Assembly (NCBI GenBank): GCA_945861535.1 | Contig: CAMAUZ010000014.1 | Span: 1 to 64,000 of the forward strand | Reading direction: 5' to 3' | Length of the DNA: 64,000 nucleotides | Origin: Akkermansia muciniphila | Lineage (GTDB): Bacteria > Verrucomicrobiota > Verrucomicrobiia > Limisphaerales > BJHT01 | Shown here: in pieces, positions 32,141 through 49,400 of the stretch | Position numbering within the stretch: the stretch's first letter is position 1 | Layout: each line of letters begins with the position of its first letter | Made by a program: the position numbers and the translations under genes | The notes under the pieces: generated by a model | Told to the model about the DNA's origin: nothing | What the model saw: the letters and a program-made list of their open reading frames with translations, nothing else | Database searches by the model: none

Positions 32141-32160
32141 CCAGTCCCGCAGGAACGACC

Positions 32161-32324
32161 GAAAATAGCCCACCGTTTCAACGATGGGTTCACGATGCCC
32201 GGCGAACCCAAGCCCCGCCGGGGCGAAAGAAAGCGTTCGACCCCACGACCGTTTTCTTTCGTCCCTGGCGGGACTTGTTCCCTGCTCATCCGCAGACCCA
32301 GCGATGAATCGCTGGGCTATTTTC
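32161..32324. repeat. inverted-repeat element, family M
   Basis: GAAAATAGCCCACCG (32161-32175) mirrors CGCTGGGCTATTTTC (32310-32324) with one mismatch. An inner pair GAAAGAAAGCGTTC/GTTTTCTTTCG also matches inversely. Confidence 0.8.
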
Positions 32325-32375
32325 TTTCGCCCGCTGGGCTGGGGAAACGATGTGGCGCGGGCGCCGCCGGAATTT

Positions 32376-39666: not shown

Positions 39667-39717
39667 GGGGGTGGGGCGGAAGTTTCAGCCGCGGCGATGC
39701 GATGGAAAGCGCCGGGA

Positions 39718-40043
39718 GGAACACGGAGACGCGATGAACACGAAGCGGCGGAGGCGCAGCCCGAGGAGCGCGGCTGTGTCCGCGGAGGACCAGCCGCAGC
39801 GGCCCCGAATCCCCGCAGGCACCCGTTGGAACCAGCGGCGTCCCATGCGGCCAACCTGCTGCGGCTGGTGCTCCGCGCACACAGCCGCGCTCCGGGGGAA
39901 TTCCTCGCGGCGCGCGAAGATCTGGCAGAGTTGCAGCACCGGGAAAAACGAGGGCGGACGGTGGCCCGAAAAGTCACCGATCAGTGAACCAAGGTCGGCC
40001 CTCGAATCCTTGTTCTTCTCTGTGTTCATCGTGTCTCTGTGGT
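39718..40043. repeat. nested inverted repeats, families F outside and G inside (G copy 2)
   Basis: GAACACGGAGACGCGATGAA (from 39719) mirrors TCTGTGTTCATCGTGTCTCT (40019-40038). Between them is a family G element with GAGCGCGGCTGTGTCCGCGG (39765-39784) and GCGCACACAGCCGCGCTC (39875-39892). It fills the gap 39667-40132 together with some unassigned sequence. Confidence 0.8.
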
Positions 40044-40132
40044 TAAAAAATCGGCTCGCATGAACCGCTACGGTTTCGCAATGACTGCGCTGCGCTCGGC
40101 ACGGGCGCGGCGACGAAGCTGTGGCGCGGATT

Positions 40133-40951
40133 TCACGGGCGTTTGGCGGGCGGAAGCTTGAGCGACTGCCCGATGCGCATGCGTTTGGGGTCCAGCCCGG
40201 GATTGGCGTCGAGCAGTTTGCTCACCGGAATGCCGTGCTGCTTGGCGATGCTGCCCGGCGTCTCGCCGGCCTTCACCGTGTGCGTGCGGCGGCCGGCGGC
40301 TTCCGCGGGTTTGGGCGTGCCGGTTTGCGCCGTGGCGGCGGTTCCGGGCGACGGTGTCGGCGGCGGGGGCGTCGGGCCGGGCGGCGTGCCCGGCGGCCGG
40401 GGCGCGGGCTTCGGTGGCACCACCGGAGCATTGGAAGGATTGACGAAATCGCGTCCCGCCCTGGCCTGGGCGATGGCGAGCTGCTTGCGGAGATCGTCCC
40501 GTTCGAGCGTGAGTTTTTGCAGCGACTCCTTGAGCGCCTCGATTTCCCGCAACTGGCTGGGCGGCGCGATGAGCATCAGCGACGACTTGGCCAGCTCCTG
40601 TTTGCAGCCGTCCATGCGCGCCTTGACGATCTCCGCCTTGTCCGAAGCCGGCTGGAGCGCGAGGAACCGCTGGTAGTGATAAATGGCGGCGGCAAAATCC
40701 TTCTCCTGCTGCTCATTCAAGATCGCCAGCTCGAAATGCGCCGCGCTCGAACGGGGATTGTTTTCGAGCGAATGCGTGAAAGCCTCGATCGCCCCGCGAA
40801 AATCCCGGCCCCGCACGCGATTGCTGCCGACGATGAAATAGGGGTCCTTCTGCTCATCTTGCGGACTGGGTCCGGGCGACCAGCACCCGGTGCCCAGCAA
40901 GGCAAAAAAAAGCGCGCCACAGAGAGCGCGCGGCACCCCGAAAAAATTCAT
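40133..40951 (-). CDS. lipoprotein with TPR, coiled coil and LysM domain
   Basis: A 272-residue lipoprotein: lipobox GTGC with Cys23. The mature part has a TPR-like helix pair (RDFRGAIEAFTHSLENNPRS, DFAAAIYHYQRFLAL), a coiled-coil segment (about 132-165), a Pro/Thr-rich linker (about 175-225), and a C-terminal LysM domain (about 222-268: HTVKAGETPGSIAKQHGIPV, DANPGLDPKRMRIGQSLKLP), which binds peptidoglycan. It probably anchors a complex between membrane and cell wall. It is not in an operon with the neighbours. Confidence 0.85.
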   Translation of the reverse strand: MNFFGVPRALCGALFFALLGTGCWSPGPSPQDEQKDPYFIVGSNRVRGRDFRGAIEAFTHSLENNPRSSAAHFELAILNEQQEKDFAAAIYHYQRFLALQPASDKAEIVKARMDGCKQELAKSSLMLIAPPSQLREIEALKESLQKLTLERDDLRKQLAIAQARAGRDFVNPSNAPVVPPKPAPRPPGTPPGPTPPPPTPSPGTAATAQTGTPKPAEAAGRRTHTVKAGETPGSIAKQHGIPVSKLLDANPGLDPKRMRIGQSLKLPPAKRP

Positions 40952-41087
40952 GGCGCGAACCTATGCGAAACGAGCGAACGGGCGCAACAGAGGGTTGCTC
41001 ACAAAAGCCAAACCCGCTCCGGCTCCCGCCATCGCTGGCGTTGGCGGTGGCGTTGACGATGTGGCTCTCTGCCTGTACTCATGGCAG

Positions 41088-41237
41088 ATGAAAACCGCCA
41101 TTGACCTGCCCGACAACCTCCGGCGCGGCTCCAAGATCGGGACGGCTCAGCGAAGGACTAAACTAAAGGATCTGCGCGCGGCTGGCCTCGATTTGACGCC
41201 GCACGCGGAAGTGAAGGCTCTCGCCGGCCTGCGGTAG
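41088..41237 (+). pseudogene. VapB-like antitoxin remnant
   Basis: A 49-residue frame beginning MKTAIDLPDNLRRGSKIGTA and continuing RRTKLKDLRAAGLDL. The pattern MKTxIDLPDxLxxRxK...TxLKDL is that of VapB-type antitoxins of PIN toxin modules, but the end is irregular (usually VxEAL) and no VapC toxin follows. It sits just before the OLD-like gene, so it may mark an old insertion site of mobile genes. Whether it is expressed is unknown. Confidence 0.5.
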
Positions 41238-41295
41238 GTTCTTCGCCCGCGTGGGCAGCCCTGAATCGATATCGGTTTCCATCTTAATAATTGGC

Positions 41296-43224
41296 ATGAT
41301 TAAAAAACTCATTCTCAAGAATTTCAAAGGGGTCGAGAGTCAGACTTATGAATTTTCAGACTTTGATCTCCTGATCGGCGCCAACAACTCCGGCAAGAGT
41401 ACGGTCTTACAAGCCATCGCCATTTGGGGGTTTTGCACGGAAGTCTTCCGGCAATCGGAACGCTCAGGGGTGACTGGAACCCGGGTTCTTTTGCCGAATT
41501 TCACCGCCTTGCCACTGCCGGAGTTCAACTTGCTCTGGCATGAGCGCACCGAGCGCAAAGGGATCAAGACCAAGCGGGATGGAAAACTGGTCAATGCGAC
41601 TGAACGAATCGAAATTGAGATTGGACTGGAATGGGAAGACCGCACCGCCACCAAGCGGGAATTTGCGATCAACTTGCGCTACGAGACACCGCAGTCGGTC
41701 TATGCGATCCCCAAACCCGGCTGGGAGGCATTTCGTGCCCTGGAACAGGCGGATAAGCTTCTCAAAGTCGTCTATGTGCCTCCGTTTTCCGGCCTGGAAA
41801 CCACCGAAAAGTGGCAGGATACCGGAGTAATTCAGGAGGAGGTGGGCAAGGCGCAACCGGGTCGGGTGTTGAGGAACCTCCTCTTGCGGGTTTGGAAGCG
41901 CCAGGAAACTAACGGCGAAAACACCATCCAGTCCCATCCGGTTAATCAGAGCGATTGGGCGGAACTCACAAGTGTCGTCGCGCGCTGGTTCAAGGTGGAA
42001 CTCTCGGAACCCCAGTATCCTGAGGGGGCCACGCGTATCATTTGCGAATACAGGCAGGCGTCGAGACACTTGGTAGAAACTGAATCTCAAAACAGTCGGC
42101 GCAAAATCAATCCCACCAGGAAATATGATCTCATTAGTGGCGGAAGTGGATTTCAGCAGACTCTGATTCTACTGGCTTTCTTTTACGGCTTTCATCCGGA
42201 CGTCATCCTCATGGATGAACCGGATGCTCATCTGCATGTCTCTCTCCAAAAGGAAGTGCTCGATTACTTCCAGAAGATGGCCCGCGCGCGGCGGGTTCAT
42301 TTCATTGTAGCCACACACTCCCGGGACTTCATCAACCAGGTGGCACCGCATCAGATTCTCACCTTGAGCGACGCTCATCCGCGACGCTTGTCTTTGAACT
42401 ATGAAGTGCATGACGCCTTGGATCAGTTGGGAGCTTTGGACAATAGCCAGATGGGCCTGCTTGCCGCCTATCGGCGTCTCCTCTTTGTCGAAAATGAAAG
42501 CGACTGGCGGCTGCTGTCCATCTTTCTCGACACCGTGCTCGGCACGGAGATCAGCGGGCAACTAAAACGCCGCCTGGCTGTCTGTTATGCCCATGGCTCC
42601 GTTTGGAAAACAGATGTGGAAAAATTGCAGCAGCAGCTACATCGCATGCTGAAGCTGGAAGGTGACACTCTCCGGGTCTTCGCCATCTCGGACCGGGACT
42701 ATTATCCTGAACCCGCCGACATCAATCAGACTAAGACGAGGAAAAACATCACTTTTCATATGTGGGAGCGAGTCGAGATTGAGAACTATCTCCTCGCACC
42801 GTATGCCATCGTGCGGCTTCTAAGTCAGGCGGAAAGCGCGCTCACTCTTCAGGAACCCGCGTTGCGGTCGGAATATCAGCGGTTGCTCCACGACCAGGCG
42901 GGCAAAGATGCCGCCCACGACAAAGCCGTCACCACCCACAACGACTACTCTCGTAAAGAGAAATTGGGCTGGGATCCCTCCACTTGCTCCCAAAAAGCCA
43001 GAGCTATGATCCAGGGAAACTGGGGCGATGGCACGTGCTTCAGTGACGCCAAAGAATTCGTGCTTCCAAGAATCAAGCAATGGTTGAAGAACGCCCGGCT
43101 CAACGAGTTCGCTGACCAAAAATTGGCGGGAGAAATCCGCCGGGAGGAACTGCCCGCCGAGATGATCCAAGTTTGCGAGCAATTGGCGGCGTTCACCGGA
43201 GTCTCGGATCGCAGCGGCACCTGA
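41296..43224 (+). CDS. OLD-like protein: AAA ATPase with Toprim domain
   Basis: A 642-residue protein. The N-terminal ATPase has Walker A GANNSGKS (28-35), an ABC-like signature ISGGSGFQQ (280-288) and Walker B VILMDEPDAHLH (from about 303), with HFIVATHSRDFINQ after it. The C-terminal half looks like a Toprim nuclease: FVENESDWR (Glu399) and AISDRDYY (Asp466-x-Asp468). This order is typical of OLD/Gabija-type ATPase-nucleases that act in phage defence, but here no UvrD-like partner (GajB) is nearby. The gene looks lower in GC than its neighbours and has more varied codons, which suggests transfer. The ATG at 41296 gives MIKKLILKNFKG. Confidence 0.85.
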   Translation: MIKKLILKNFKGVESQTYEFSDFDLLIGANNSGKSTVLQAIAIWGFCTEVFRQSERSGVTGTRVLLPNFTALPLPEFNLLWHERTERKGIKTKRDGKLVNATERIEIEIGLEWEDRTATKREFAINLRYETPQSVYAIPKPGWEAFRALEQADKLLKVVYVPPFSGLETTEKWQDTGVIQEEVGKAQPGRVLRNLLLRVWKRQETNGENTIQSHPVNQSDWAELTSVVARWFKVELSEPQYPEGATRIICEYRQASRHLVETESQNSRRKINPTRKYDLISGGSGFQQTLILLAFFYGFHPDVILMDEPDAHLHVSLQKEVLDYFQKMARARRVHFIVATHSRDFINQVAPHQILTLSDAHPRRLSLNYEVHDALDQLGALDNSQMGLLAAYRRLLFVENESDWRLLSIFLDTVLGTEISGQLKRRLAVCYAHGSVWKTDVEKLQQQLHRMLKLEGDTLRVFAISDRDYYPEPADINQTKTRKNITFHMWERVEIENYLLAPYAIVRLLSQAESALTLQEPALRSEYQRLLHDQAGKDAAHDKAVTTHNDYSRKEKLGWDPSTCSQKARAMIQGNWGDGTCFSDAKEFVLPRIKQWLKNARLNEFADQKLAGEIRREELPAEMIQVCEQLAAFTGVSDRSGT

Positions 43225-43294
43225 CTGGCGAGGTTAACATCGAATCTGACGGCGTTGTCACGTTCGGGGCGGGCGATTCGCCGTCGCCAGTCGT

Positions 43295-44332
43295 TCACTC
43301 TTCGGGCGCGGCGAAGGGATTGGTGCTGGCGCGGCGGGGCGCGGGCTTGGCCGCAGGCGCGGGTTCAGGCTCGGGCGGAGCGGCGGGCGCGGGTTCAGGA
43401 AGTTTTTCCACCGGCGGCGGCGCGGCGGGCTTGGGCTTGTTGGATGCGGGGGTGGGCGTGGGTGCTGTCGCCTGACGGGCGGGGGCGGCGGGCGCGGGGG
43501 CGGGGACAAAGGGATTGGCTGCTGCGGCGGCGGCGATGGCGGCGTGGGTGTCGAGGCGGAAGATGGCGGCGACGGAGTAAGTCCAGCCGATGAGGAAGTG
43601 GAGGACGAAAATTATCACGAGCAGCACGAGCGGCAGGCGGATGAGGCCGTAGGCGAGGATGCCCAGGCTCAACAGCAGCGCGCCGGGCATGAGAGCCATC
43701 GCGGCGATGCGCCAGCAGCCGCCGAAGGTGATGGGGCGTCCGGCAAGCACGGCGAGGAGTCGCAGCGGAATGGTGTAGAACGTGGCCAGCAGCCACCACG
43801 CGGCGACCAGCGCGACGGCGAGCAGCAGCGCGGTCACGGCCACGATGGCGGGTTTCCACGCGCCCCACCACGGCACCAGCTCGACGCGGTTGAGGGGGAA
43901 ACTCCACACGGGGTCGAAGGCGATGGGAAGGCAGGCGACGAGGGTGCAGAGGCGGATTTCGGTCTTCGCGATTTCCACCTGCACGTCGGCGACTTGTCCG
44001 GGTTCCTGCTTGCCGGCGGCATCGACGAGGATGGACAGCGCCGGGCTGTCGGCGAGGACGGCGAACGGCTCGCCGTGCCAGTCGAGGTGTCCGTGTTGCA
44101 CGCGGCCGGCTTCGGGCAGCGCTTGAATCGCCTTTTGCACGGTGGGCCACCAGGTCAGTTCCAGCGCTTGGAGCACGCACGCCACTGCGAGGAGCAGCAC
44201 GAGGAATTGAACAATGAAAACGCGGAGGGCGGTCGCCCCGGCAAACGCTGCGACGCCGCGAAAGGTCAGCGGCTGCCACGCGCGCGGCGGTCGCCACGCG
44301 GGCGGGGCGGAGTGGGTTAGGGGCGCGGACAT
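43295..44332 (-). CDS. polytopic membrane protein with proline-rich tail
   Basis: A 345-residue protein that I cannot assign. Transmembrane helices lie at about 33-60, 160-190, 205-225 and 228-255, with a large extracytoplasmic loop between the first and second (about 62-155). The last 90 residues are a Pro/Ala-rich cytoplasmic or periplasmic tail (PAPAPAAPARQATAPTPT, EPEPAPAAKPAP). No enzymatic motif is visible. The two-domain layout recalls proteins of the DUF1189 type, but I do not claim membership. Confidence 0.7.
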   Translation of the reverse strand: MSAPLTHSAPPAWRPPRAWQPLTFRGVAAFAGATALRVFIVQFLVLLLAVACVLQALELTWWPTVQKAIQALPEAGRVQHGHLDWHGEPFAVLADSPALSILVDAAGKQEPGQVADVQVEIAKTEIRLCTLVACLPIAFDPVWSFPLNRVELVPWWGAWKPAIVAVTALLLAVALVAAWWLLATFYTIPLRLLAVLAGRPITFGGCWRIAAMALMPGALLLSLGILAYGLIRLPLVLLVIIFVLHFLIGWTYSVAAIFRLDTHAAIAAAAAANPFVPAPAPAAPARQATAPTPTPASNKPKPAAPPPVEKLPEPAPAAPPEPEPAPAAKPAPRRASTNPFAAPEE

Positions 44333-45348: not shown

Positions 45349-46242
45349 TCAGCGCGTGACGATGCCCACCGCCAGCTCGGCGGCGCGCACGGTGTTTTGG
45401 AGCAGCATCGCGATGGTCATCGGCCCGACGCCGCCGGGGTTGGGCGTGATCTTGCCGGCGATGGGCTGCACGCCCGCGAAGGCGACATCGCCGACGAGTC
45501 GGGAGCCGCCCTTGGCCGCGGGATCGCTGACGCGGTTGACGCCGACGTCGATGACCACGGCTCCGGGTTTCACCATGTCGGGCGTGAGAAATTCCGCCAC
45601 ACCCATCGCCGCGATGATGATGTCCGCGCGGCGGCAGTGCGCCGCGATGTCGCGGGTGCGGGAATGGCAGAGCGTCACGGTCGCGTCGGCGTGGCGGCCT
45701 TTTTGCAGAAGAATCGCGGCCATCGGTTTGCCCACGATGTTGCCGCGGCCGAGCACGACGACTTCGGCGCCGGCGATCACCATGCCCGAGCGGATGAGCA
45801 ATTCATGCACGCCCGCCGGGGTGCAGGGCGCGAACCCGCCGGGATCGCCGAGCAGCAGGCGGCCCATGTTTACGGGATGAAAACCATCCACGTCTTTCGC
45901 GGGGGAAACGGTGGCGAAGACGGTGGGCGCGTGGATGTGCGCGGGCAGCGGCGCCTGCACGAGAATGCCGTGGCAGGCGGGGTCGTGATTGAGCTGCTCG
46001 ATGAGCCGGAGCAGTTCGGCCTGGGACGTGGTGTCGGGGAGGACCTGCGTGGTGGAGCGGATGCCGAGGCGGGCGCTGGTGCGCTCCTTCATGCCGACGT
46101 ACACCTTTGAGGCGGGATCCTCGCCGACGCGGACGAAGGCGAGGGCGGGTTCGCAGCCGCGGGTTTTCAAGGCCGCGACGCGCGCGGCGGTTTCGGTGTG
46201 GAGCTGTTCGGCAATGGCGCGGCCATCGATGAGGTTGTCCAT
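45349..46242 (-). CDS. folD: bifunctional methylenetetrahydrofolate dehydrogenase/cyclohydrolase
   Basis: A 297-residue cytoplasmic enzyme of one-carbon metabolism that interconverts methylene- and formyl-tetrahydrofolate. Motifs in order: LAFVRVGEDPASKVYVGMKE (active-site Lys region), GILVQAPLPAHI, PAKDVDGFHPVNMGRL, APCTPAGVHELL, VVVLGRGNIVGKPMA (NAD(P)-binding), TVTLCHSRT, and PIAGKITPNPGGVGPMT. Length and pattern are normal. Start ATG at 46242. Confidence 0.97.
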   Translation of the reverse strand: MDNLIDGRAIAEQLHTETAARVAALKTRGCEPALAFVRVGEDPASKVYVGMKERTSARLGIRSTTQVLPDTTSQAELLRLIEQLNHDPACHGILVQAPLPAHIHAPTVFATVSPAKDVDGFHPVNMGRLLLGDPGGFAPCTPAGVHELLIRSGMVIAGAEVVVLGRGNIVGKPMAAILLQKGRHADATVTLCHSRTRDIAAHCRRADIIIAAMGVAEFLTPDMVKPGAVVIDVGVNRVSDPAAKGGSRLVGDVAFAGVQPIAGKITPNPGGVGPMTIAMLLQNTVRAAELAVGIVTR

Positions 46243-46278
46243 GACTCAGTCGTGCCTACGCAGCAAAAACCGCCGAGT

Positions 46279-46409
46279 GGACCACAGAGACACGATGAAC
46301 ACAGAGGAAAACCAGTGTTCTCCACGGTTCCGGGCAGGCACCATTCAGTGAATCAGCATCGGCCGGCCAATCCTTTGTTTTCTCTGTGTTCATCGTGTCT
46401 CTGTGGTCC
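46279..46409. repeat. 28-bp perfect inverted repeat, family F (CACAGAGACACG type)
   Basis: The arms at 46279-46306 and 46382-46409 are perfectly complementary (28 bases each, beginning GGACCACAGAGACACGATG). The spacer is 75 bases. It fills most of the gap between folD and the SH3 protein gene. The same word order is found at 39.7-40.04 kb. Confidence 0.93.
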
Positions 46410-46441
46410 AACAGCTTCGTCCCCAGTGCATAGGCCATGAC

Positions 46442-49400
46442 TCAGTCGATGGTCTTCAATGTCTCGACGTTCAGGACGGGGGCCGTGGGGTAGCGCGAAT
46501 CGGTGGCCTCTTCGCCGGTCACGATCACGCGGCGACCGCTCAACATTTTGATGCCGAGACTGGTGTTCGTGGAGGCGAGGAAGCCGATGACTTTGCCGGT
46601 GCGGGGATCTTCGAGCGCGAAGCTGCTCGGGGCCTGGCCGCTGACCCAACTGCTCACCAGACCTTCGCGGGTGACGATGCGGCGCGCCGGGGCGGCGGGG
46701 ATGCCGTCGGGGGTTACCGCGGGCGTGGCGGTGGCGGTGGCGGGGGCATCGCCCGTGCCGGCGGGCTTGCTGGTGGCGCGACTGTTTTTGGCGAAGAGGC
46801 GTTGATACCACGCGCGCGGTTTGGTGCCGTCCACGGGCAGTTCGTCGGCGGGCTTGGGCGGGGCGACCGTGGCGGAAGGGACGGGGACGACATTGACCGG
46901 CTCGGGCACCGGATTCGGATTGGCTTTTACTTCCTCGGTTTTCGCCTGGGTCAGTTTCAGCAGCGACGATTCCAGCGGTGCGGGGATGATTTCCTTGCCC
47001 TTGGGCGAATTCGACGGCGGCGCGGGACGGGGTTCGGCGGAGATGCCGACGCGGCGGGGTTCCGGCGGGTTGGGGAGCGAAGGCGGGGGCGTGGCGGGGA
47101 GCCGCGGCGTCGTGACTACGGCCGGGGCAGCCACCGGCAGCGGGGTGGGCGGTTGGGCGCGCGCGATTTCCGGCGCGGGTTTGAGCACGACGGTTTCGAG
47201 GGCCGGCTCGGGGTTGATCGACGGCGGCGCGGTCTGCGGCGTGGTGGTCGGGGGCGGCGTGGTCGGCGGGAACTCGGGGATTTTCACCTCCGGCGCTTTG
47301 ATTACGAGCGGCGTGGTGACGGACGGAAGGTCAACCTTGGGCGGCGTCGGCAGGGGACGCGTTTCGAGTTTCGCCAGCACCTGCGGGGATTCGGCATTCG
47401 ACGGGCGCAGCGTGGGAATCGACGACAGTGGCTTGATTCCGGGGAACGGACCCGCGTCGGGGATGACGGGGGCGGCTACGGTGATGGGCGTCGGCGTGGT
47501 GGTGAGCGGGGTCGTTTCGGGGAGCTTTACTTCGGGCAGTTTGGTCTCCGGAAGCTTGACGACGATGGGCGCGGGCGCGGGAGTCGCGGGTGCGGGCGCG
47601 GGTTGGATCGAGACGACGGGCACCGGGGCGGGAACGGGAGTGGGTTCAACAACCGCGATCACCGGCTTCGGGGCCGGCGGCGGAACCTCGGCGACGGGCT
47701 TGGGCAAAACTGCTTCGGTCGGCGGCGCAATCGTCGGCGGCACGGCGAGCGGGCGCGATGCGATTTCGGGCAGCTTGGTCTCGGGCAATTTCACCGCCGG
47801 AAGCTTCGTCTCGGGCAATTTCACTTCCGGCAGTTTCGGTTCGGACAGCTTCGCGATCACGATGGGCGTGGTCGGTGCCTCGACTTTTGGCGGCGCGGGG
47901 ACGGGCGTGGGCGGCACGGTCGCGATGACCGCTGGTGGTTCGACTTTCACCGGTGACGGAACGGGGATCAGCGTCGCCGGCTTCAAATCAGGAACGGTGG
48001 CTGGCGCCGGAGCGGGTGCTGGTGCGGGAGCGGGCGGCACGGCCGCGATGACTGCTGGCGGTTCGACTTTCACCGGTGACGGAACGGGGATCAGCGCCGC
48101 TGGCTTCAAATCAGGAACGGTGGCTGGCGCCGGAGCGGGAGCGGGAGGCGCGAACACCAACGGCGTCGGCGTCGGCGGCTTGATCCGCGGGGTCGCGACG
48201 ACGACGGGCGGCGCGGCTGGTTCCGGCTTGGTGGGGGTGAGGGACGGATCTTCGGGTGTCGGCTTGATGACGGGCGGCAACGAGGGCGCGATGACGAGGG
48301 GCGGCGTGGCCGGTTTGACGGGCGCCTCGGGCACGGCCACGACGGTGGGTGCGGGCACCGACACGACGGGCACAACTGGCGCGGGGGGGGCGACTTTCGG
48401 CGTCTCGGGTGTGGAGGGTGCGGGCGGCGGAGTGACCGGACGCGTCACCACATTCAGCGGCGTGATCTGGACGGTCTGAACAGAGAAGGATGGCTTGGGA
48501 ACCGCGGGCGCCGGCTCGATGGCCGGGCTGGGGATGGTGGGTGTGACGACCGCGACAGACGGCGTCGGCGGCGCTGTCACCGACGGTGTCGGAGGCGTGG
48601 GCGCAACCGGTCGTTCGATCAGCTTCAACGGCGCGGCGGGCACCGTCGGGACGGCGACGACCGCTGTCGGGGTGACGGGCTTGGCGGGGTCGTCGGGTGC
48701 TTTCACCGTCGGGACCGGGATCACAGCCGGAGCTGGGAGAACCGGCGGTTCGACCTTCACCACGGGCACGACCGGCTTTACGTCCTCCACTTTGGCGATC
48801 ACCGCCGGGGCTTCGACTTTGGGTGTCGCGGGCGTGGTCAGCTCGGTTGGCGGCGCGGGCGGACGCGTCACCACATTCAGCGGCGTGATCTGCACGGTCT
48901 GGATCGAGAAGCTGGGCTTGGGCGCGGCGGGTGGTGCTGCTGGAGCGGGTGTCGGCACGATGGGCTTCACCTCCGCAACCGTCGGCGTCGGCACGGGCGT
49001 CGGCGTCGGCACGGACGGCGCGGGTTCGGGAGCCGGCGTCGGGGGCACGGCGGGCGCAGAGGCGATGACGAGCGGCTTCGGCACCGCGGGCACGACGACC
49101 ACGACCGGCGCGGGCGTTGCCGGCGGTGGCGGCGCAGTTTCTTCGACCGATTTGCTCAAGAGGCTGCTCGCCACGAACACCGCCGCGGTGGCCGGCGCTT
49201 CGATCTCCATCCAGTCGCCCACGGTGCGGAGGTCCTTGATGACGTCGCCCTTTTTCAGTCGCGCCAGAATGCTGAAATGCTCACCCGGCCCGGAGCGAAC
49301 ATTGAGATTCTTGGGAACAATCGCCTTGGTGGCCGGGTCCACGAACCCCGCGCGAATCCACACCGGCGTGTTCGCGGGAATCTGGATGCGCGCCCATTTC

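What the first reader, a model, noticed from the sequence alone, without database searches (positions are those of the whole stretch)
41088..43224. Lower-GC island with OLD-like ATPase/Toprim protein and VapB-like remnant
The ATPase keeps Walker A, an ABC signature, Walker B, and Toprim-like Glu399 and Asp466-x-Asp468. Codon use and GC look different from the neighbours, and a degraded antitoxin-like frame lies just before it. OLD-family proteins act in phage defence alone (class 1) or with a UvrD-like helicase (Gabija); no helicase is present here. It is a candidate single-gene defence island.
Basis: partly seen in the sequence, partly recalled or inferred. Interest (0 to 1): 0.55.

Follow-up and report, generated by a model that had tools for sequence, protein, structure and literature searches.

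The report
PARIS-like ATPase-Toprim gene, probably mosaic
This is probably a horizontally acquired single-gene anti-phage protein that senses infection and then cuts the cell's own RNA; it sits where a related genome carries a toxin gene, and its two halves seem to come from two different lineages of such proteins.

Summary
A low-GC gene (41296-43224, 642 aa, GC 54%, GC3 65%; ten flanking ORFs GC3 81-90%) encodes an ABC-type ATPase plus Toprim protein behind a decayed vapB. The congener G001 keeps the flanks collinear but has intact vapB and a PIN-domain vapC there, so the gene stands where vapC should be.

The best defence model is AriAB (fused PARIS). The Toprim half alone matches only AriAB and AriB models, and VIA-align puts PARIS AriB first (Z 10.5) above OLD Toprims (Z 8.2); Foldseek alone prefers OLD. 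Pfam DUF4435 is not matched, so I call it PARIS-like, not a strict member.

Relatives are sporadic across phyla, occur in predicted viral contigs, and are often beside restriction-modification genes. The protein looks mosaic: its ATPase half is about 50-56% identical to one clade with another Toprim; its Toprim half 37-45% to a second clade with another ATPase. The switch lies near residues 341-361.

Most likely function: abortive infection by an ATPase sensor that releases a Toprim nuclease, perhaps against tRNA. Defence, trigger and substrate are inferred; nothing was assayed.

The parts
40952..41087 (+). Intergenic region upstream of the former vapBC (divergent from the LysM/TPR gene); may hold the old promoter
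   Evidence: 84% of aligned bases identical to the same region of G001, with 21 gap positions; promoter role is inference
41088..41237 (+). vapB remnant (49 codons, truncated and decayed; degenerate similarity continues to about 41280)
   Evidence: Collinear with the intact vapB-like gene of G001 (L046:2870-3094); not recognised by Pfam
41296..43224 (+). PARIS-like (AriAB-like) fused ABC ATPase + Toprim protein, 642 aa
   Evidence: PADLOC AriAB E 8.3e-26, 88.8 bits; Pfam AAA_15 and AAA_21 over cut-off
41296..42345 (+). ATPase/sensor half (about residues 1-350), lineage 'A'
   Evidence: 50-56% identical to 18 proteins and to L057 and L058; tree 99/94 with clade A plus L088
41377..41400 (+). Walker A, GANNSGKS (residues 28-35)
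   Evidence: G28, N30, N31, G33, K34 invariant in 30 of 30
42136..42159 (+). ABC signature-like SGGSGFQQ (residues 281-288)
   Evidence: G283, G285 and Q288 invariant in 30 of 30
42202..42225 (+). Walker B, VILMDEPD (residues 303-310)
   Evidence: L305, D307, E308, P309 and D310 invariant in 30 of 30
42316..42318 (+). H-loop histidine 341 (name from recall)
   Evidence: Invariant in 30 of 30
42316..42378 (+). Approximate mosaic switch, residues 341-361
   Evidence: Sliding identity changes from clade A to clade B here
42409..43221 (+). Toprim/effector half (about residues 372-642), lineage 'B'
   Evidence: 37-45% identical to L047, L048, L097, L157, L160; tree 100/100 with clade B; AriB first by VIA-align
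42490..42504 (+). Toprim E399...D403
   Evidence: Both invariant in 30 of 30
42691..42699 (+). Toprim D466-R-D468
   Evidence: D466 invariant in 30 of 30; D468 not
42763..42789 (+). Conserved W490...E496-x-Y498 motif after the Toprim core
   Evidence: W490 and Y498 invariant, E496 in 90% or more

Best explanation
The gene encodes a single-polypeptide, PARIS-like abortive-infection protein acquired by horizontal transfer. The ABC ATPase half would bind ATP, oligomerise and hold the Toprim half inactive until it binds a phage product (for example an anti-restriction protein). The freed Toprim part would then cut host nucleic acid, most likely tRNA, and stop growth. Shown here: foreign composition, intact motifs, AriAB/AriB-type assignment of the Toprim half (with one search dissenting), the vapC position, and incongruent origins of the two halves. 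Inferred from PARIS: oligomerisation, trigger, release and tRNA cleavage. The sensor half belongs to a lineage several of whose members adjoin DNA methyltransferase genes; here it stands alone and carries a Toprim half of another lineage.
For: Best PADLOC model AriAB, 8.3e-26, 88.8 bits; the fused-profile cut-offs printed by Rousset et al. are 80 and 20 bits (passage; that the PADLOC model is one of those profiles is my inference). Toprim half alone: of 5027 models only AriAB (2.9e-11) and AriB (6e-4) at E<=1. Its predicted fold aligns first to PARIS AriB (8ux9_A Z 10.5, 213 residues, rmsd 6.3; 8v46_D Z 10.4, 215, 6.9), then OLD Toprim 6nk8_A (Z 8.2, 171, 5.1). Spread like a defence gene: 11 of 387 phylum genomes at E 1e-15 and 14 of 320 order genomes at 1e-40, own genome counted in both; 80 named loci kept of 279 that encode relatives; 34 predicted viral contigs, many by partial ATPase matches only. 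R-M genes: in 17 of 33 fetched loci (13 of 29 without the four that supplied queries); within 1.5 kb in 19 of 80 named loci, against 5 of 59 at 4.5 kb or more. Absent at the same place in G001.
Against: Pfam DUF4435, the published AriB marker, is not matched by the window protein. Foldseek alone ranks an OLD Toprim first for the Toprim half (6njv, E 6e-3) and shows no AriB in its 50 rows; the AriB alignments have rmsd above 6 and 10-11% identity, and the tool warns that Z below about 13 can be uninformative for largely helical models. The ATPase half is closest to PtuA, retron PtuA and SMC heads, with no AriA in the 50 rows of either search; by profile, AriA (6.6e-8) comes after retron, OLD, PtuA and GajA ATPases. 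No defence gene was recognised in the two adjoining genes, and none of seven R-M and associated query proteins matches the 64 kb. 61 of 80 named loci had no R-M match within 1.5 kb, and 0 of 20 viral loci had one. No activity was tested.
Confidence: 0.6

Rival explanations
1. A class 1 OLD-type protein: a stand-alone ATP-regulated DNA nuclease that degrades or nicks phage DNA.
For: ATPase-Toprim in one chain; Foldseek's first two hits for the Toprim half are the Xanthomonas OLD C-terminal region (E 6e-3 and 0.028), and the first PDB sequence hit of the Toprim profile is the same protein, E 0.03; PADLOC Old 3.2e-15 on the whole protein.
Against: The best stretches of the Old and GajA models lie at residues 1-42 or about 300-410, that is, in the ATPase and at most the first Toprim motif; the Toprim half alone matches neither but AriAB and AriB; VIA-align puts AriB above OLD and aligns about 40 more residues.
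Confidence: 0.2
2. An orphaned accessory of a restriction-modification operon: a guard that no longer works without its partner, or works only with an R-M system elsewhere in the genome.
For: Many relatives adjoin Mod, Res, Eco57I-type, type ISP or DUF1156 genes; the window's genome has five N6_N4_Mtase matches on other contigs.
Against: All motifs are intact; 16 of 33 relatives had no such gene in the fetched stretch by those queries; E. coli PARIS works without type I R-M or BREX in the cell (passage of PMC9122126).
Confidence: 0.1
3. A non-defence cellular role, as reported for an archaeal OLD-family ATPase (Cran1) in cell-cycle progression.
For: Such a role exists in the superfamily (start of the abstract of PMC12796447, listing).
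Against: Sporadic presence, foreign composition and absence from this place in the congener.
Confidence: 0.05
4. A recently acquired gene that is already inactive or neutral.
For: It lies beside a decayed vapB; no close orthologue was found with which to test selection.
Against: 642 codons open, motifs kept.
Confidence: 0.05

Closest known systems
PARIS (AriA + AriB), fused single-gene form AriAB
   Same: ABC ATPase and AriB-type Toprim in one chain; best model match; first VIA-align match of the Toprim half; links to restriction biology
   Different: DUF4435 Pfam model not matched; the AriB fold match is remote; two halves from different sublineages; trigger unknown
OLD class 1 (P2 Old, Thermus and Xanthomonas OLD)
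   Same: Single-gene ATPase-Toprim; Foldseek's first match for the Toprim half
   Different: Toprim half less similar than to AriB by profile and by VIA-align
Gabija GajA (OLD class 2)
   Same: ATPase-Toprim architecture
   Different: No helicase in the adjoining genes; lower Z for the Toprim half (8j4t, Z 5.6). The relative L096 lies between a methylase and, further on, a UvrD-like helicase gene
OLD-ABC/TOPRIM modules attached to BREX and BREX-related systems (passages of PMC12839542)
   Same: Same protein class recruited beside methyltransferase systems
   Different: The window copy stands alone at a former vapBC locus

Membership tests
PARIS, fused AriAB | AAA_15 or AAA_21 ATPase domain over the published score cut-offs (32 and 27 bits) | tested here: met
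   78.5 and 62.9 bits; cut-offs
PARIS, fused AriAB | Match to a fused AriAB profile at 80 bits (AAA_15 type) or 20 bits (AAA_21 type) | tested here: inconclusive
   88.8 bits to PADLOC PDLC02981, but it is not shown that this model is one of the paper's profiles
PARIS, fused AriAB | DUF4435 domain (PF14491) | tested here: not met
   No match at E<=1 in the whole protein or its Toprim half; 2 of 30 family members match weakly, best E 0.064
PARIS, fused AriAB | AriB-type Toprim | tested here: inconclusive
   For: AriB profile E 6e-4, AriAB 2.9e-11; 8ux9_A Z 10.5, rmsd 6.3, 213 aligned and 8v46_D Z 10.4, next 6nk8_A Z 8.2. Against: Foldseek alone puts OLD first and lists no AriB in 50 rows
PARIS, fused AriAB | Activation by an anti-restriction protein; tRNA cleavage; growth arrest | not testable with these tools
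   Needs expression and phage or Ocr assays
OLD class 1 | Single gene with ATPase and Toprim, without a partner | tested here: met
   One ORF; the adjoining genes are a LysM/TPR gene and a DUF1189-like gene (weak, below cut-off)
OLD class 1 | OLD-type Toprim domain | tested here: inconclusive
   Pfam OLD-like_TOPRIM matched by 1 of 30 members, E 0.19, not by the window; fold match below AriB by VIA-align but first by Foldseek
Gabija | GajB UvrD-like helicase gene adjoining | tested here: not met
   Adjoining genes are not helicases
Retron (OLD class 3) | Reverse transcriptase gene and retron RNA adjoining | tested here: not met
   Adjoining genes are not reverse transcriptases; no retron RNA over Rfam gathering scores in the window

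The most novel reading that the evidence does not exclude
The protein is a natural sensor-effector swap: a PARIS-like ATPase lineage (A), elsewhere found with its own Toprim and in several cases beside methyltransferase genes, has exchanged its whole Toprim effector for that of another lineage (B) at a junction near residues 341-361, and the recombinant has taken the place of the vapC toxin in a vapBC locus, possibly using the old antitoxin promoter. It would mean that sensor and effector halves of fused PARIS-like proteins are interchangeable cassettes.
Probability: 0.5. Interest if true: 0.5.

Novelty: new variant of a known kind. Interest (0 to 1): 0.4.

Why it matters
If right, it points to a natural pair of exchangeable halves, so that which half reads the phage signal and which sets the target can be tested by comparing natural A, B and A+B proteins. 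It also shows a defence-type gene standing where a toxin gene stands in a congener, next to the decayed antitoxin.

Tried and rejected
Class 1 OLD and Gabija as first choice: set below PARIS-like because the Toprim half alone matches only AriAB/AriB models and aligns first to AriB by VIA-align, although Foldseek alone prefers OLD. In the searches with the whole model the ATPase filled the list (PtuA, retron PtuA, GajA, OLD, SMC heads) and no AriA or AriB appeared in the 50 rows, so the Toprim half was folded alone.

Repeats at the borders of the gene: none convincing in 40900-43600. tRNA gene as an integration site: none in the window. Phage records: no match at 1e-5; plasmids: three matches of 21-27% identity. 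A bona fide fused AriAB for direct comparison: none at E 1e-40 in 288 phylum genomes, and none in the 14 control genomes, so that answer shows no absence. The two 2024 Nature papers on PARIS are not held and were not read.

Limits of the mosaic test: the clades were named after identities had been seen, so the AU values are not of a hypothesis fixed beforehand. In the first, 20-row set the ATPase-half test was p 0.054 and the Toprim-half test p 0.00066. In the 32-row set the window plus the 11 clade-A rows alone has support 62/87; the starred set (99/94) also holds L088; and grouping the window with just L047, L048 and L097 is disfavoured in the Toprim tree too (p 0.039), so its place inside clade B is unsure. 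The 31 relatives were chosen from about 129 held; several are stop-to-stop frames with possible extra residues at the start, and L145 ends near its contig end.

Limits of the context count: the 33 loci are 33 of the 36 distinct loci that (at 1e-15) gave besides the window; three (L065, L066, L071) were not extended. The query proteins come from loci of the same family, so four of the 33 match by construction; L098 holds only a fragment of an Eco57I-type gene, L080 only an 87-residue piece of the family protein; other R-M families would be missed. L144 appears to be the same contig as L095 (same length and match position). Among 34 viral loci 20 had a usable frame; that these contigs are viral is the collection's prediction.

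Full report
What is there. Between a LysM/TPR gene (40133-40951, minus strand) and a DUF1189-like gene (43295-44332, minus strand; Pfam match below its cut-off) lies one open gene on the plus strand, 41296-43224, 642 aa. Its GC is 54% and its GC3 65%; ten flanking ORFs (two with approximate starts) have GC3 81-90%, and resampling their codons on the same protein gives 82 +/- 1.5%.

The site. The only other genome of the genus that my searches gave, G001, keeps both flanks collinear on one contig (window 39937-41110 and 43293-44333). Between them G001 has a 74-aa vapB-like gene and a 137-aa PIN-domain gene (PIN E 4.8e-9), the usual layout of vapBC (the name vapB rests on position and recall, Pfam gives it no VapB match). 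The window keeps the head of that vapB at 66% DNA identity, while the two adjoining genes are 89-91% identical, and a decayed tail that still aligns (6 of 2000 shuffles as good). Nothing like vapC was found beside or across the gene. Whether vapC was replaced directly cannot be told from two genomes.

What it is. Pfam finds AAA_15 and AAA_21 over their cut-offs and no accepted C-terminal domain. The best of 5027 defence models is AriAB (8.3e-26), ahead of NsnB, AriA, MAD3, PtuA, Old and GajA. All 20 members of the first alignment match AriA and AriAB models, but they also match many other ATPase models, so the ATPase half is not decisive. The Toprim half alone matches only AriAB (2.9e-11) and AriB (6e-4); of 30 members, 15 match AriAB and 7 AriB. 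Folded alone (mean pLDDT 85) it aligns by VIA-align first to AriB of PARIS (Z 10.5 and 10.4, 213 and 215 residues, rmsd 6.3 and 6.9), then to OLD Toprims (Z 8.2 to 6.4) and GajA (Z 5.6). Against this, Foldseek alone gives OLD first (E 6e-3), and Pfam DUF4435 is not matched.

Relatives. Matches at E 1e-15 occur in 11 of 387 sampled genomes of the phylum and at 1e-40 in 14 of 320 of the order, own genome included in both. A scan of predicted viral contigs gave 34 loci, many with partial ATPase matches only; two match at 46% over residues 1-370. One named record (L144) has the length and match position of a contig of an order genome (L095) and is titled Limisphaerales, so the window's order is probably Limisphaerales (inference).

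Neighbours of relatives. Several members sit in restriction-modification operons: after an N6_N4 methylase and before a Res-like gene (L049, L079), between Res and methylase (L050, L082), after Eco57I-type methylases (L072, L083), next to DUF1156 genes (L099, L101), next to a type ISP methylase (L077). Of the 33 extended loci, 17 match an R-M query in the fetched stretch; without the four that supplied queries, 13 of 29. Of 80 named loci 19 have one within 1.5 kb, and of 59 with enough flank 5 have one 4.5 kb or more away; of 20 viral loci none has one within 1.5 kb. For scale, PF01555 methylase matches number 160 in about 150 Mb of 25 of these genomes (my sums of the rows), about one per Mb. 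None of the query proteins matches the window's 64 kb, though the genome has five PF01555 matches on other contigs. Such links are in print for OLD-ABC/TOPRIM modules in BREX and related systems (passages of PMC12839542).

The mosaic. The first 347 residues are 50-56% identical to 18 proteins from several phyla and to L057 and L058 (clade A); where the Toprim half is in view (15 of those 18, and both of L057 and L058) it is only 21-32% identical. The Toprim half is 37-45% identical to L047, L048, L097, L157 and L160 (clade B), whose ATPase halves are 31-36% identical to the window's (L097 not computed by halves). In 40-residue windows the preference changes between residues 341 and 361. In trees of 32 rows the ATPase half falls with clade A (99/94, a set that also holds L088) and the Toprim half with clade B (100/100). 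Holding the window with B in the ATPase tree is rejected at p 0.017, and with A in the Toprim tree at p 1e-64; the clades were chosen after the identities were seen, and long branches make the second value less literal than it looks. In the smaller first set the two tests gave p 0.054 and 0.00066. Because 11 of 11 clade-A rows keep their own Toprim group in that tree, the simplest reading is that the window protein received a new effector; a swap in the other direction or strong rate differences are not excluded. Similar GC in both halves argues against an assembly join.

How it may work. From PARIS (passages of PMC12409363 and its section on the cleavage mechanism; passages of PMC9122126): AriA, an ABC ATPase, forms a hexamer that sequesters AriB; a phage anti-restriction protein such as Ocr triggers the system; AriB, a two-metal Toprim nuclease, cuts tRNA, and growth stops. 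By analogy the window protein would do this in one chain. I give 0.6 to PARIS-like abortive infection, less to tRNA as the exact target.

Novelty. Fused AriAB proteins are known (PARIS in 5.2% of genomes, as two genes or a fusion), and so are links to restriction systems. I saw no report of a sensor-effector swap in this family, or of one at a vapC position, in the listings; those are titles and starts of abstracts from open-licence papers only. The earlier ABC-ATPase classification cited in PMC12839542 was not among the 8 of 18 papers listed, and I neither looked it up nor read it. Hence: new variant of a known kind.

Noticed in passing
window 46239-46448: An insertion of about 196 bases relative to G001, with inverted CCACAGAGACACGATGAACACAGAG-like ends inside and a 14-base duplication (CCATGACTCAGTCG) at its borders that occurs once at the matching place of G001: looks like a MITE-like mobile repeat.
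   Followed up: partly
window 39686-40073: A repeat with about 40 similar stretches listed in the window's genome and shorter ones in G001; at this place G001 has a version that lacks about 195 inner bases (39742-39936).
   Followed up: partly
window 32143-32188 (-) and 32297-32340 (+): Two Acido-Lenti-1 RNA matches over the gathering score, in opposite orientation.
   Followed up: no
L049 (G001:C396): The congener lacks the window gene at this site but has another, 30% identical family member between a methylase and a Res-like gene.
   Followed up: partly
L095, L096: Clade A relatives directly after a methylase gene; in L096 a UvrD-like helicase gene follows further on: an arrangement that recalls Gabija.
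   Followed up: no
L048: A clade B relative lies alone between DUF1553 (PSD1) and DUF1501 genes, which usually adjoin (from recall): perhaps another single-gene insertion.
   Followed up: no
L080, L054: Fragments of the family: an 87-residue start next to an Eco57I-type methylase, and a copy broken into three pieces.
   Followed up: no
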